From IMG/VR virus record IMGVR_UViG_3300024259_000010, positions 171,834 through 235,833 of that record: 64,000 bases of DNA, one strand, 5' to 3'. Below the pieces are notes generated by a model. The model made no database searches, was not told the origin of the DNA, and worked only from the letters and a program-made list of their open reading frames with translations. The position numbers and the translations under genes are program-made. The DNA comes from a virus. Shown here piece after piece: positions 2,117 to 53,368 of the stretch (position 1 is its first letter; every line of letters starts with the position of its first letter).

Positions 2117-4164
2117 GATTAGGAAACTTACCTATAGCGAGTACCAAGACAACACTTAAGACTGGATTAGTTGGATGGTGGTTAATGGATAAGATCGTAG
2201 GTGGTAAGGTTCAGGACCTTAGTGGTAATGGCCACGATGCCACCGTTGTAGGTGATGTTGAAGACGGGCATAGAGGGTTACATGGAGGCTCCCTCTATTT
2301 CCCCGGAACCAACGATCGCTTAGTAGTAGCACATACTGCAAAACTTGCAATAACAGGAAGTATTACAATATCCTATTGGGTAAATATAGATAAGGGTGAA
2401 ACTGGTGATCAGATGGTACTATCTAAAAGTGCTGGTTTTGAACCAGGTGGATACCAATCATATATGAATGGTGGTCTTGAAGGTTATGGTATGCGATTTG
2501 GTCGCGGTAATGATCTTCCTGATCCTGATGATAGTAGTGAACGTAGGAATTGTGATCTATTAAATCATACTGGAGTATGGGCCAACTATTCAGTATCATG
2601 TACTTCAGTAGGGGATGTTCATACATTAAGATTCTTTATCAATGGGGTATTCTCCAATGAAGATGTGTTTACTGAACCGGTTATTGACAGGGGTAATGAT
2701 CTATGGATAGGTGAATCCCCAGGCGGTAGTCGTGATTTTAATGGACACTTAGCTGACTTACGTATATGGAATCGAGCATTGACTGATACTGAAATGGAAA
2801 TTGTATATAACGATATTAACTATAATATTAGACCTGCTTTGAAACTTAAGCTTAATGATGTTGATGAAACAAACAGGCTTCTTGATAATGCTTACCGTAG
2901 TAGTGAAGTTTTGATTAACTCTACTGAACCGGAAGATATGGTGGGGCATCCTGGTATATTCGGTAATGACTTATGTTTTAAATTTGATAACAATGATGAC
3001 TTTTTAAGCATAATTCCATCTACTACAATATTTGATTGTTTACTTGGTGATTTCACATTCTTAGGGTGGTTTAATACAACGGCTGGTTCTGTTACTAATG
3101 AAGTTCTGATAGCACAGGCTAAAGATGATGGTGATATTACTCCAGCACCTATATCTATAGAAGTGAATACTAATGATGTATTAACAATGAGATTCGGTGA
3201 TGGTATTGATTCTACTACTTCAACAGGGACTTCTCTTGTGACTCGTGGTAGATGGGAACATATAGCAGTTGTAGTATCAGGAACGTCAGTATATTTTTAT
3301 ATTAATACTGTTCTCGATGCTAGTGGTGCTATAACTAATACTAAAACTAGAGCATTTGGTGAGCAAGAACTGCGTATAGGTATAAGACAACTTGCTAGAG
3401 ACTTCGGTGGATTTATGGATCATCTTGAACTACATCCTAGTGCATGGTCACAAGATAGTATTCAAGAAGATTATAATGAAACTGATTCACTTGGATCATA
3501 TGGTGATCTGGAATGTTGGTATAAGTTAAATGAAGAGTCTGGAACAGTTGCAGAAGATTATTCAAAGAACCACAATAACTTAAATATATCAAGTGGTGTA
3601 ACTATTAATCAACCTGGTCAAATATATAAATCATATGAAATGGATGGATCGGTTAATTCTGTAGTTCAAGCAACTGGTCTTTCTGGATTACCAGCTATTG
3701 GTACTGGGGATTATACAATATCTCTGTGGATGAAAATAAATGGTACCCCGGCTGATAGTACTCAATCATTACTTGCATTTGGTGGGTTTTCAAATGGACT
3801 AGTGTTGCGATATATTGTAAGTGGTGAAGGCACAACTGGTTACTTTAGTATGTCTGAAAACACTAGAGGTGAAAATAGTCCAAGTAGAGCAGGTCTTAAT
3901 GATAATGTATGGCATCATGTATGTGTTATAAGATACAATGGGCTTATATCTTATCATATAGATAATGTATTAGAAGGTACGGATGAGTCCGATGATGGTT
4001 CTGGTGACACTAATGACATTACTGTCGCCCCTACACTTATTGAACTTGGTAGAAATGGTGCTGGTAATCAGGAACTTGATGGTTGGATAGATGATGTACG
4101 TTTCTATTCTAAAGCATTAACTAATTACCAGATTCAACAACTGTCAGAAATGAGCGAACCTTAA
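2113..4164 (+). CDS. Virion protein with three LamG (concanavalin-like) modules
   Basis: This 683-aa protein contains three similar modules at roughly residues 15-215, 240-450 and 465-683. Each opens with a line like GWWLMDKIVGGKVQDLSGNG or LECWYKLNEESGTVAEDYSK and contains a W-sandwich region such as VWHHVCVIRYNG and a DVRFYSKALT or DLRIWNRALTD ending. That pattern is typical of LamG/Concanavalin A-like lectin domains, which bind glycans. Placed directly after a tail fibre gene with a 4-base overlap, it is most likely a fibre-associated adhesin that touches the host surface. No signal peptide or membrane segment is seen. An enzymatic role is not supported. Confidence 0.75.
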   Translation: MRLGNLPIASTKTTLKTGLVGWWLMDKIVGGKVQDLSGNGHDATVVGDVEDGHRGLHGGSLYFPGTNDRLVVAHTAKLAITGSITISYWVNIDKGETGDQMVLSKSAGFEPGGYQSYMNGGLEGYGMRFGRGNDLPDPDDSSERRNCDLLNHTGVWANYSVSCTSVGDVHTLRFFINGVFSNEDVFTEPVIDRGNDLWIGESPGGSRDFNGHLADLRIWNRALTDTEMEIVYNDINYNIRPALKLKLNDVDETNRLLDNAYRSSEVLINSTEPEDMVGHPGIFGNDLCFKFDNNDDFLSIIPSTTIFDCLLGDFTFLGWFNTTAGSVTNEVLIAQAKDDGDITPAPISIEVNTNDVLTMRFGDGIDSTTSTGTSLVTRGRWEHIAVVVSGTSVYFYINTVLDASGAITNTKTRAFGEQELRIGIRQLARDFGGFMDHLELHPSAWSQDSIQEDYNETDSLGSYGDLECWYKLNEESGTVAEDYSKNHNNLNISSGVTINQPGQIYKSYEMDGSVNSVVQATGLSGLPAIGTGDYTISLWMKINGTPADSTQSLLAFGGFSNGLVLRYIVSGEGTTGYFSMSENTRGENSPSRAGLNDNVWHHVCVIRYNGLISYHIDNVLEGTDESDDGSGDTNDITVAPTLIELGRNGAGNQELDGWIDDVRFYSKALTNYQIQQLSEMSEP

Positions 4165-41122: not shown

Positions 41123-41632
41123 ATGAGATATCCAACAAATAAAAATAATGAGTTTAAAATACATCTCAAAGAACTTGGGTTTAAGTCATATAAAGATGTG
41201 GCATTAGCTGCAGGGACTACAGCACCATTGATCAAGGCTATTCTATCCATCGGTCCAAGTGATAGATTTGTGTTGAACCGAGCAGCACATGCATTAGCCA
41301 CGGTTGGTGTAGACATTAGCATCCTGGGTTATGAATCTCCTGAGAAATTGGAAGATATAGATGGGCTTATGTTTGATGCACCACAAAGCGATTACAACTT
41401 CTTCGATTCTATCTACGACAATGAACGTAGAGAAGTAGTCTTGGAAATGCTTGCAACTCTGACAGAGCGGAAGGCCGCGATCCTATATGACATATATTTT
41501 GAAGGTTCTACTTTTACCAGTATAGCCAGCAAGTACGGTGTCACAAAAAACAGGATAAAGCAAATCCACGACAGAGCTTTAAGGGCTATGCGGCACATAA
41601 CACGTGCAAGAATGTTACAGCAAGTTTATTAA
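41123..41632 (+). CDS. Sigma-70 region 4-like transcription factor with XRE-like N-terminus
   Basis: The 169-aa product has an N-terminal helix-turn-helix of XRE style (YKDVALAAGTTAPLIKAILS, residues 23-42) and a C-terminal block from about residue 100. That block reads EMLATLTERKAAILYDIYF then SIASKYGVTKNRIKQIHDRA, ending LRAMRHITR. The last part closely follows sigma-70 region 4 (FGVTxERIRQIEAKALRKLRH), which binds the -35 element and the beta flap. No region 2 or 3 is seen. It lies directly behind the polymerase pair with its own early promoter, so it may adapt host or phage RNA polymerase. Confidence 0.7.
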   Translation: MRYPTNKNNEFKIHLKELGFKSYKDVALAAGTTAPLIKAILSIGPSDRFVLNRAAHALATVGVDISILGYESPEKLEDIDGLMFDAPQSDYNFFDSIYDNERREVVLEMLATLTERKAAILYDIYFEGSTFTSIASKYGVTKNRIKQIHDRALRAMRHITRARMLQQVY

Positions 41633-42078: not shown

Positions 42079-42103
42079 AAAGAACCTTCGGGTTCTTTTT
42101 TTT
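42079..42103 (+). terminator. UUCG-loop intrinsic terminator
   Basis: Same core as at 24489: AGAACC, TTCG, GGTTCT and T8. Confidence 0.95.
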
Positions 42104-42125
42104 GAAGTTCAATATATTTCAGGTA

Positions 42126-42133
42126 TATATTAC
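42126..42133 (+). promoter_or_regulatory. Early-type promoter TATATTAC before the tRNA-like element
   Basis: The octamer ends 5 bases before the 5' end of a tRNA-like sequence. The usual leader is absent, so transcription may begin at or next to the tRNA-like 5' end. Confidence 0.8.
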
Positions 42134-42138
42134 TTATA

Positions 42139-42209
42139 TGATAAGTAGCTCAGCAGGTCAGAGCATTCGGATCTCCGAAAGGTTACGGGTTCGAGTCCCG
42201 TCAATATCA
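42139..42209 (+). tRNA. Degenerate tRNA-like element with a 4-base anticodon loop
   Basis: The order is D-stem GCTC/GAGC with loop AGCAGGTCA, anticodon-position stem TTCGG/CCGAA, variable AGGTT, and a perfect T-arm ACGGG-TTCGAGT-CCCGT. The anticodon loop is only ATCT, 3 bases too short, so there is no normal anticodon. The acceptor pairs only partly (TGATA with TATCA, then mismatches), and no CCA is encoded. It may be a decayed tRNA, a tRNA mimic or an RNA processing signal. It is flanked by two TATATTAC promoters. Confidence 0.5.
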
Positions 42210-42245
42210 AACTACATTTTTTTGTATATCATTTATATTCAAGTA

Positions 42246-42253
42246 TATATTAC
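42246..42253 (+). promoter_or_regulatory. Early-type promoter TATATTAC
   Basis: Followed by AGATAAACTATTTTAAATAA and an AAAGGAG site before 42294. Upstream TGTATATCATT matches the common flank. Confidence 0.9.
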
Positions 42254-42293
42254 TTCAATAGATAAACTATTTTAAATAAAAAGGAGAAAAATT

Positions 42294-43097
42294 ATGGAAA
42301 ATGAAATTAAGATTGCAAATACCAATGTTGTGATAAATGATGATCATGTCCTGGTTGATATGAAAGATGGTACAAAATTGGTAGTGCCAAACACTATGTT
42401 GAATGAGAAGTTTCTATCATTAGAAACATTGACCGTAGTACCACACTTGTTTACTGCATCTAATGATTTTATTTTAGATGAAATCAATAATGACCCGAAG
42501 GCTGTCATATTTGCATGTAGAGATTTTATGCTAGACGACCTCATGGAAAGTGGTACGTTACCTACAATTATTGAAGTCAAGGAAGATGACGCAATTGTGG
42601 AAGCATTTAATGGTGTATTGAATCAGACTTTACCAGATTGGTGGAAATCAGATCATGATGATCATGGTCAATATCTTTCCGACACTGATGAGGTAAAGGA
42701 TTCTCTCACCGAGTACAATGGAACCGGGTTCGGATTATATGTTACATCATACATTGATGGATGTTGGAGATTCCGATTAAAACAGAATCATATTGAAAAA
42801 GATATATCTATTGCTCCAGATATTGAAGAACTTAGGACACTAGTTATAAGTGTTGCTAAGTTATTCGATATTGAGCTTGGTAATGTGTTTTCATGTGATG
42901 ATCCAAATCTAGTGGCATACGCTACTGCATACCTTAAGAGTTATATACCTATGGTGTATAAAGATAAGAATGTATTTGGTGGTGTTATGTGGGCATTGTT
43001 AAATCTCGATGCTTATGAAGTACAAACTGCATACCAACATATTGAATGTGATGGAGGAATGCCATTTAATGTATTGGCGTTTGATACTGATTATTAA
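42294..43097 (+). CDS. Hypothetical early protein, 267 aa
   Basis: The product is acidic, mixed alpha/beta, with Trp in TLPDWWKSDHDDHGQYLSD and WRFRLKQNHIEKDI. No family recognised. It is the only gene between its early promoter and a strong terminator. Confidence 0.65.
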   Translation: MENEIKIANTNVVINDDHVLVDMKDGTKLVVPNTMLNEKFLSLETLTVVPHLFTASNDFILDEINNDPKAVIFACRDFMLDDLMESGTLPTIIEVKEDDAIVEAFNGVLNQTLPDWWKSDHDDHGQYLSDTDEVKDSLTEYNGTGFGLYVTSYIDGCWRFRLKQNHIEKDISIAPDIEELRTLVISVAKLFDIELGNVFSCDDPNLVAYATAYLKSYIPMVYKDKNVFGGVMWALLNLDAYEVQTAYQHIECDGGMPFNVLAFDTDY

Positions 43098-52267: not shown

Positions 52268-53221
52268 ATGAAATTAGGACTAGAATCATTAACGCATGTG
52301 GACCAAAAGAGTTCTATCTCTATGGCGGCTTTTTACAGAGCTGAAGTAGATATGCTTGAATCTTATATTGGGATTGAGTCTATGGTAGGCCAATTGGATA
52401 ACACTATTGAAACCAGAGAGAACATCAGTCACATCAAAGCGACTGTTGAAGCTCATGGTATTGACAACGGATTAATCGCATTGTTCGGCAATGAACTTAG
52501 TGGCATTGCTCCTACGTTCAAGTCTAAAGATGCCAAAGGTGTAACTGTTGCACTCGAAGGTGTTCTTAAAGACGCTGGTACTGCTGTTATTGACTGGATC
52601 AAAAAGATCTGGGCTAAAATTAAAGAATTCTTTGCTAAGACCTTCAGTGCGACTGGACTCGCTCTTAAGATCTATGAAAAAGAACTTGATCGTGTACAGA
52701 AACTTGGTGGCGGTGCTGCTTATAAAGGTAGCTTGAAATCTGAAAAGAAAGTACCTTATTACTACAAGCCTGAAACGATGTCGATTCGCCTGAAAATGGC
52801 TGCGAAATCATTTGAGCTTGCCGAAAAGATTGAAAATGAAATCGGTAGTGGTAAATGGGCTGGAAATGCTTCCTATGAAACTATCAACACTTATGTTGAG
52901 CAGTTTGCTAAAGAAGGTAAAGATGACAAACAGCCTGACTTTGTTACCACAGTTGTTGGTACTACTACTCAAGCATTCGCTGGGTATCGTAAAAACTTAA
53001 CTGAGTACAAAGCTGTTATTAACAAATACAAAGCTCTTCCAGGTAAGATCCGCAGTCACAAGATTTCCAAATTGGAAGTTACTGAAGGCGCGATTGGCGA
53101 TCCTAAGAAAATGTCGTCAGCGGCATCTAAATGTATTAGCTCCGGTATGCGCTATATCGTTCGTGACCTTCATGGGTCCATTTCGGTCTTGCGTAACATC
53201 GGTCCTGCTAAAAAGAAATAA
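52268..53221 (+). CDS. Inner-head-type protein with predicted prohead cleavage site
   Basis: Start at 52268, not 52262, because the AAGGA site lies 6 bases before it and the paralogue starts in the same way (MKLGLE here, MKIGIE there). The N-terminal 97 residues hold a conserved ISHIKATVEAHGIDNGLIAL then LFGNELSG, ending in VALE|G at residue 97, a site matching the S/A-x-E preference of phiKZ prohead protease. The remainder is basic and helical with amphipathic stretches. Codons are clearly optimised, as expected for an abundant virion protein. Likely packaged in the head and cut during maturation. Confidence 0.6.
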   Translation: MKLGLESLTHVDQKSSISMAAFYRAEVDMLESYIGIESMVGQLDNTIETRENISHIKATVEAHGIDNGLIALFGNELSGIAPTFKSKDAKGVTVALEGVLKDAGTAVIDWIKKIWAKIKEFFAKTFSATGLALKIYEKELDRVQKLGGGAAYKGSLKSEKKVPYYYKPETMSIRLKMAAKSFELAEKIENEIGSGKWAGNASYETINTYVEQFAKEGKDDKQPDFVTTVVGTTTQAFAGYRKNLTEYKAVINKYKALPGKIRSHKISKLEVTEGAIGDPKKMSSAASKCISSGMRYIVRDLHGSISVLRNIGPAKKK

Positions 53222-53251
53222 TATTTTTAAAAATAAATATTAAAGAAATAA

Positions 53252-53368
53252 GATAATAGGTATACTCGCAAGACATCTAAGATCCTCTCTGGAGTTGCTA
53301 AAGATCTTATGTCCGGTCTTAAATGGGATCTCCAGGTTTGGAGAAACGTTAAGTCTGACGCTAAATAA
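53252..53368 (+). pseudogene. 3'-end remnant of an inner-head paralogue fused to a half terminator
   Basis: The first 22 bases copy the left arm and loop of the hairpin at 54403 (one mismatch). They join directly to a coding fragment with no start codon: frame TSKILSGVAKDLMSGLKWDL then QVWRNVKSDAK and a stop. That matches the C-terminus of the 52268 protein (SK..SG......DL.....V.RN...AK). It looks like a recombination or deletion scar of a lost paralogue. Confidence 0.7.

What the first reader, a model, noticed from the sequence alone, without database searches (positions are those of the whole stretch)
42126..42253. tRNA-like element with a 4-base anticodon loop between two early promoters
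D-arm, variable loop and T-arm are textbook tRNA. The anticodon loop is ATCT (4 bases) on a perfect TTCGG/CCGAA stem, and the acceptor pairs only in part. Losing exactly the anticodon while keeping the elbow could leave a mimic for tRNA-binding enzymes, a primer-like element or a cut site for RNase P. It could also be simple decay. A TATATTAC promoter ends 5 bases before it, so it may be made on its own early in infection.
Basis: partly seen in the sequence, partly recalled or inferred. Interest (0 to 1): 0.75.

Follow-up and report, generated by a model that had tools for sequence, protein, structure and literature searches.

The report
Phage tRNA gene missing its anticodon
A jumbo phage carries a tRNA-shaped gene, placed exactly at the start point of one of its early promoters, whose anticodon loop has shrunk so that it can no longer read codons; this copy looks partly decayed, but a survey of other phages turned up dozens of anticodon-less tRNA-like RNAs whose fold is clearly maintained.

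Summary
RF00005 hits 42140-42209 at 43.1 bits; D-arm, T-arm and anticodon stem are perfect, the anticodon loop is 4 nt (AUCU), and the acceptor is 4+1 pairs with one nucleotide missing. It resembles tRNA-Met and cannot decode. New here: the 42 forward-strand sites of the phage's early-promoter motif (ATATATTAC-N6-purine) put the predicted start at G42140, nucleotide 1 of the element, and a T7 tract follows, so an ~84-nt leaderless early RNA is predicted.

No near relative exists (best ~30% aa), so conservation of the short loop cannot be tested at this locus.

A survey of IMG/VR found a real virus class: 32 distinct elements with no anticodon arm (29 with 7/7 acceptor pairs, strong covariation), and six with the window's architecture (5-bp stem, tetraloop). 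Comparable elements in bacterial genomes are mostly broken relics or scaffold gaps. The window copy fails two marks of that class: paired acceptor and C48 (it has U48).

Best reading: a tRNA gene under an early promoter that has lost its anticodon and is probably decaying (0.6); a working non-decoding mimic remains possible (0.3). The mimic idea is supported for the class, not for this copy.

The parts
42079..42103 (+). intrinsic terminator of the upstream gene (AAAGAACC-TTCG-GGTTCTTT + T8)
   Evidence: sequence; the reverse strand of the same hairpin is listed by the scan
42105..42133 (+). early (virion-RNAP-type) promoter, GAAGTTCA...ATATATTAC
   Evidence: same motif as 41 other forward-strand sites in the genome, 42 forward versus 2 reverse; AR9/phiKZ early promoters start 6 nt downstream of the AT-rich element (PMC5312081)
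42140..42140 (+). predicted transcription start, G+1 = nucleotide 1 of the tRNA-like element
   Evidence: ATATATTAC-N6-R; all 13 forward ATATATTAC sites of the window have a purine at +1, 11 of 13 preceded by T; inferred, not measured
42140..42209 (+). tRNA-like element, tRNA-Met-like, non-decoding
   Evidence: RF00005 43.1 bits; best annotated matches are phage tRNA-Met
42140..42145 (+). acceptor 5' strand GATAAG (one nucleotide short)
   Evidence: a perfect partner of the 3' strand would be GATATTG
42148..42164 (+). D-arm, GCTC-AGCAGGTCA-GAGC, intact
42166..42179 (+). anticodon arm reduced to a 5-bp stem with a 4-nt loop, TTCGG-ATCT-CCGAA
42180..42184 (+). variable loop AGGTT, with U at position 48 instead of C
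42185..42201 (+). T-arm, ACGGG-TTCGAGT-CCCGT, intact
42202..42212 (+). acceptor 3' strand CAATATC, discriminator A, then AAC instead of CCA
   Evidence: sequence; the three canonical tRNAs of the genome encode CCA
42217..42223 (+). T7 tract, possible end of the short RNA; also the upstream part of the next promoter
   Evidence: sequence; many other early promoters of the genome are preceded by a T tract
42225..42260 (+). second early promoter (TATATTAC 42246-42253), predicted +1 A42260, for the 267-aa gene at 42294-43097

Best explanation
This is a phage tRNA gene, of tRNA-Met type, placed so that early transcription by the phage's injected RNA polymerase would begin at tRNA nucleotide 1 and end at the T7 tract about 84 nt later. 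It has lost three nucleotides of the anticodon loop, one nucleotide of the acceptor stem and the C48 of the core, so it can no longer decode and is very unlikely to be charged. Most likely it is a decaying early tRNA gene that is still transcribed. Shown: the tRNA ancestry, the short loop, the damage, and the register of the promoter motif. Inferred: that it is transcribed, the start and end points, and that the damage is neutral decay.
For: tRNA ancestry: RF00005 43.1 bits; similarity to phage tRNA-Met genes with the TTCGG/CCGAA stem. Loss of decoding: 4-nt loop. Damage outside the anticodon: acceptor 2/7 pairs in the normal register, 5 with one gap; none of 77 viral short-arm elements falls as low as 2, whereas 28% of 57 N-free bacterial-genome elements do. 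U48: C48 in 73 of 77 viral short-arm elements and U48 in none, but C in only 12 and U in 17 of 39 relics with broken acceptors. The centroid fold leaves the acceptor open. A second tRNA relic (T-arm with CCA) lies just after tRNA-Leu in the same genome. Placement: +1 at nucleotide 1; ordinary phage tRNAs with a promoter element placed so close occur too, so this placement fits a former working tRNA gene.
Against: Three of four stems and all D- and T-loop contact bases are intact; only a few changes separate it from a perfect tRNA and none hits the D-arm, T-arm or anticodon stem, which is somewhat uneven for random decay (my own rough estimate, not a formal test). The four outer acceptor pairs are still formed. 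Six other viral elements share the exact 5-bp plus tetraloop form, and such elements can be under selection.
Confidence: 0.6

Rival explanations
1. A working non-decoding tRNA mimic: a member of a phage class that keeps the tRNA body and drops the anticodon loop or arm. Made very early, it would occupy or mislead an enzyme that grips tRNA by its body, such as a host tRNA-cutting defence nuclease, which would then find no anticodon loop to cut.
For: Class: 32 distinct viral elements without an anticodon arm, 29 with 7/7 acceptor pairs; covariation 0.76 and 0.85 versus 0.18 and 0.17 in shuffles, 0 of 500 as high, 98-99% of cells paired. Two viral contigs sharing a ~97% identical block keep the same GCAA-tetraloop arm while acceptor and T-stem differ by paired changes. 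The window element has the same 5-bp + 4-nt + 5-nt layout as six of them and its own early promoter. Phage tRNAs that evade tRNA-cutting defences are established (PMC10264068, PMC11555353), and a defence protein, OLD, is reported to cut off the anticodon arm of tRNAs (title cited in PMC13096335; paper not readable here).
Against: The window copy lacks two features of the class, a paired acceptor and C48. No relative shows it conserved. No expression or binding data. The decoy function is untested for any member.
Confidence: 0.3
2. An RNA-processing mark (t-element or mascRNA type): a tRNA-shaped structure that RNase P or RNase Z cuts to shape neighbouring transcripts.
For: RNase P and RNase Z need the acceptor and T-arm, not the anticodon (established knowledge). 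In one armless family (L173, L246, L252, L257, L294) the element lies about 30 nt upstream of a ribosome-binding site and start codon.
Against: In the window the RNA would start at nucleotide 1, so there is no 5' leader for RNase P; the acceptor is weak; a terminator precedes it and a new promoter follows it.
Confidence: 0.05
3. A Y-RNA-like (YrlA) partner of a Ro60/Rsr protein.
For: A weak YrlA match, 17.4 bits, over the T-arm. Some jumbo phages encode TROVE proteins (PMC7824862).
Against: 17.4 bits against a cut-off of 69; no TROVE protein in this genome.
Confidence: 0.01
4. Sequencing or assembly error in an intact tRNA gene.
For: A single metagenomic record without relatives; short-gap tRNAs in bacterial assemblies are often scaffold gaps written NN.
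Against: No N here; the changes are at three separate places (acceptor, loop, position 48), not one homopolymer slip.
Confidence: 0.04

Closest known systems
Phage-encoded tRNA-Met (e.g. Enterococcus phage EF24C and Listeria-type tRNA with anticodon arm TTCGG-N7-CCGAA)
   Same: D-arm, T-arm and anticodon stem; 77% identity over 63 nt
   Different: 4-nt instead of 7-nt loop, broken acceptor, U48, no CCA
tRNA pseudogenes and fragments in prokaryotic genomes (PMC9897764)
   Same: partial tRNA not able to decode; damage also outside the anticodon
   Different: those fragments mostly lack whole arms through integration events; here all arms remain and an early promoter abuts it
Anticodon-armless and tetraloop tRNA-like elements of viral contigs found here (L190, L202, L207, L209, L215, L157 and others)
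   Same: same 5-bp stem, tetraloop and 5-nt variable loop as six of them; D- and T-arms kept
   Different: those have paired acceptors and C48; the window copy has neither
Phage tRNAs with mutated anticodon loops that evade anticodon nucleases (PMC10264068)
   Same: change is centred on the anticodon loop
   Different: those are tRNAs that still replace host tRNAs in translation; this one cannot decode
tmRNA (the same phage encodes one, L013)
   Same: tRNA elbow without a usable anticodon
   Different: no messenger part, no Ala identity pair G3-U70

Membership tests
Functional tRNA | cloverleaf recognised by the tRNA covariance model | tested here: met
   43.1 bits, cut-off 29
Functional tRNA | 7-nt anticodon loop | tested here: not met
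   4-nt loop ATCT; ARAGORN finds no gene
Functional tRNA | 7-bp acceptor stem | tested here: not met
   4+1 pairs, one nucleotide missing
Functional tRNA | 3' CCA, encoded or added | tested here: inconclusive
   not encoded here; encoded in the phage's three tRNAs but not in its tmRNA; no phage CCA-adding enzyme found; host unknown
Viral anticodon-less tRNA-like class (defined here) | D- and T-arms kept, anticodon loop or arm lost | tested here: met
Viral anticodon-less tRNA-like class (defined here) | acceptor stem with 6-7 pairs (64 of 77 members) | tested here: not met
   2/7 ungapped, 5 with one gap
Viral anticodon-less tRNA-like class (defined here) | C48 (73 of 77 members) | tested here: not met
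   U48
Viral anticodon-less tRNA-like class (defined here) | conserved or covarying in relatives | not testable with these tools
   no relative carries the element
phiKZ-type early transcription unit | AT-rich TATATTAC motif with start 6 nt downstream | tested here: met
   no transcript measured
Y RNA (YrlA) | YrlA model score above cut-off | tested here: not met
   17.4 of 69 bits
Y RNA (YrlA) | Ro60/Rsr (TROVE) partner | tested here: not met
   no PF05731 in the phage record; host unknown
t-element / mascRNA-like processing signal | cleaved by RNase P or RNase Z | not testable with these tools
   needs RNA ends

The most novel reading that the evidence does not exclude
Phages carry a class of non-decoding tRNA-like RNAs that keep the acceptor, D-arm and T-arm under selection for pairing but have replaced the anticodon loop by a tetraloop or removed the whole arm, perhaps as uncuttable decoys for tRNA-cutting defences; the window element is a working, very early, leaderless member of it. 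The class itself is well supported here (about 0.8); that this copy works is the weak step.
Probability: 0.3. Interest if true: 0.8.

Novelty: new variant of a known kind. Interest (0 to 1): 0.5.

Why it matters
By itself the element is a small curiosity: an early-promoter tRNA gene that lost its anticodon. It matters because following it up exposed many phage tRNA-like RNAs without an anticodon whose acceptor and T-stems covary strongly. They score above the Rfam tRNA cut-off in about half of the loci checked, and where ARAGORN calls them it mostly gives 'tRNA-???', so they are easily passed over as odd tRNAs or pseudogenes. If they work, they would be a testable answer to what phage tRNAs do beyond decoding, with decoys against anticodon-cutting defences as the obvious hypothesis. 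In one pair of contigs the acceptor stem differs sharply inside an otherwise ~97% identical block while pairing is kept, which would suit an arms race.

Tried and rejected
A 22-base D-arm scan gave one unrelated GC-rich tRNA-Met. BLAST of the element against E. coli genomes gave nothing, and against plasmids only tRNA-like matches. YrlA/Ro60 rejected. No CCA-adding enzyme or Rnl2-type RNA ligase in the phage. A scan for tRNAs right behind TATATTAY in viral contigs gave ordinary tRNAs, many behind sigma70-like promoters, so a start at nucleotide 1 is not by itself proof of a special role. The gap-13 group (L172, L180, L226, L228, L237, L287) was set apart: no acceptor pairing, but a conserved CATAC-GAAA-GTATG hairpin follows it. 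Some partial hits in bacterial genomes turned out to be scaffold gaps (NN). Literature searches found no description of anticodon-armless phage tRNA-like RNAs; subscription papers are not held.

Full report
WHERE IT LIES. The window is bases 171834-235833 of a 235,833-base IMG/VR record. It encodes split multisubunit RNA polymerases of the phiKZ type, but its closest relatives in the phage and viral collections share only about 25-30% amino-acid identity in the RNA polymerase beta subunit. The element sits between the beta-prime/sigma-like block and a helicase. In the seven relatives inspected no tRNA lies in this region; in the six with the phiKZ-like order the helicase follows the polymerase genes directly.

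THE OBSERVATION. RF00005 matches 42140-42209 end to end at 43.1 bits. D-arm, anticodon stem and T-arm are perfect. The anticodon loop is ATCT, 4 nt. The acceptor has four outer pairs, a 1x2 mismatch and one inner pair; a perfect partner of the 3' strand CAATATC would be GATATTG, while GATAAG is present. Position 48 is U. ARAGORN reports nothing. The genome has three canonical tRNAs, Met-CAT, Arg-TCT and Leu-TAA, all with encoded CCA, and a tmRNA. The element's closest matches are tRNA-Met genes with the anticodon arm TTCGG-N7-CCGAA, so the simplest history is a tRNA-Met-like gene with three loop nucleotides and one acceptor nucleotide lost.

THE PROMOTER. The genome has 42 forward and 2 reverse copies of ATATATTAC-N6-R. 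In the window all 13 forward ATATATTAC sites have a purine at the seventh base after the motif, 11 of 13 preceded by T. The published early promoters of AR9, and those of phiKZ and phiR1-37, have the start site 6 nt downstream of the same kind of element (PMC5312081). Applied here, +1 is G42140, the first nucleotide of the tRNA-like element. T7 at 42217-42223 follows and a second early promoter then serves the next gene. Thus a leaderless RNA of about 84 nt is predicted. This is inferred; no transcript was measured. Ordinary phage tRNAs with a similar AT-rich element placed so that transcription would start close to tRNA nucleotide 1 were found in other phages, so the placement tells that this is, or was, an expressed tRNA gene, not that it has a new role.

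IS THE SHORT LOOP PART OF SOMETHING LARGER? The tRNA search of 28 related jumbo-phage records showed partial tRNAs in arrays with a missing anticodon arm. I therefore scanned viral contigs for AGCTCAGNNGGNNAGAGC-gap-GGTTCGANNCC with short gaps (normal gap 26) and bacterial genomes with the same motif. Viral elements pile up at gap 11-13 (no anticodon arm) and again at 23-25. Of 32 distinct viral elements with gap 11-12, 29 have all seven acceptor pairs and all have the three outer T-stem pairs, neither of which the search pattern fixes; shuffled partners give 3.4-3.8 pairs on average. Representative sets show covariation scores of 0.76 and 0.85 against 0.18 and 0.17 in shuffles, none of 500 as high, and all slid controls far lower. 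C48, also not fixed by the pattern, is present in 73 of 77 viral elements with gap up to 23. In bacterial genomes the gap-14-22 elements average 3.9-4.4 acceptor pairs (shuffled about 3.0-3.1), and most of those with good pairing carry NN scaffold gaps. Some viral cases come from contigs whose IMG numbering looks like that of isolate genomes (L179, L276, L291; my reading of the identifiers), and Faecalibacterium phage FP_oengus has an unannotated short-loop one, so metagenome misassembly is not a general explanation.

TETRALOOP MEMBERS. Six viral gap-23 elements have exactly the window's layout, 5-bp stem, 4-nt loop and 5-nt variable loop, with loops TTTT, CTTG, CGTG, GCAA (twice) and ATTG. 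L209 and L215 come from two contigs that share a block of about 1.1 kb at roughly 97% identity, with an identical neighbouring tRNA-Asp (72/72). The tetraloop arm between them is identical, yet the acceptor and T-stem differ at most of the 15 of 74 changed positions, largely in paired changes. That is selection on structure after loss of the anticodon, or replacement by a related copy.

HOW THE WINDOW COPY COMPARES. It shares the layout but fails the two features that separate maintained viral elements from relics: acceptor pairing (2/7 ungapped, 5 with one gap; no viral element up to gap 23 falls as low as 2, 28% of N-free bacterial-genome elements do) and C48 (U48 in none of 77 viral short-arm elements, in 17 of 39 broken-acceptor relics). 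A second tRNA relic follows tRNA-Leu in the same genome. I therefore judge decay more likely than function, about 2:1, while noting that three stems and all elbow bases are intact.

MECHANISM. Most likely: an early tRNA gene that can no longer decode, still transcribed, with no remaining role. Main rival: a non-decoding mimic. What the class keeps (acceptor, D- and T-arm, elbow) is what tRNA-body-binding enzymes grip, and what it drops is what anticodon nucleases cut. Phages are known to answer tRNA-cutting defences with their own tRNAs (PMC10264068, PMC11555353), and OLD is reported to amputate the anticodon arm (title cited in PMC13096335; not read). The decoy idea is an inference.

LIMITS. 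The survey pattern fixes the D-arm and the T-loop, so it is biased to elements that keep those; acceptor pairing, the outer T-stem and C48 are the unbiased tests. Host, expression and function are unknown.

Noticed in passing
L190:3741-3799, L202 around 4046-4103, L207:4430-4488 and about 30 further viral loci: tRNA-like elements with paired acceptor, D-arm and T-arm but no anticodon arm; strong covariation.
   Followed up: partly
L209:1521-1594 and L215:4688-4761: Syntenic tetraloop tRNA-like elements in a ~97% identical block: identical GCAA-tetraloop arm, diverged but still paired acceptor and T-stems, CCA encoded.
   Followed up: partly
L172, L180, L226, L228, L237, L287: A separate conserved family: D-arm, short linker, T-arm, then a CATAC-GAAA-GTATG hairpin with paired changes and AGGTGTGTAGGG; no acceptor stem. 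Possibly a distinct structured RNA.
   Followed up: no
L173, L246, L252, L257, L294: Armless tRNA-like elements of one family about 30 nt upstream of a strong ribosome-binding site (AGGAGGGATG), as if in a 5' leader.
   Followed up: no
L013:1135-1563 (record bases 52880-53308, outside the window): The phage encodes a tmRNA (tag GTKVINFPSARALAA) with the Ala identity pair G3-U70 and no encoded CCA.
   Followed up: no
L111, just after tRNA-Leu (from about base 216): tRNA relic: T-arm with CCA and a hairpin CGACT-ATTGC-AGTCG, no D-arm.
   Followed up: no
L112 and L113 (jumbo-phage tRNA arrays): Several tRNAs with missing or enlarged anticodon arms next to canonical ones.
   Followed up: no
L321 (Lysobacter) and L330 (Pseudomonas nitroreducens): Tandem short-loop tRNA-like elements in bacterial contigs, called tRNA-??? 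by ARAGORN; L340 (Oscillospiraceae) has three short-gap motif copies 93 bases apart.
   Followed up: no
window 41123-41632: A sigma-factor-like protein (PHROG 351, E=7e-12) just upstream, unusual beside a phiKZ-type polymerase.
   Followed up: no
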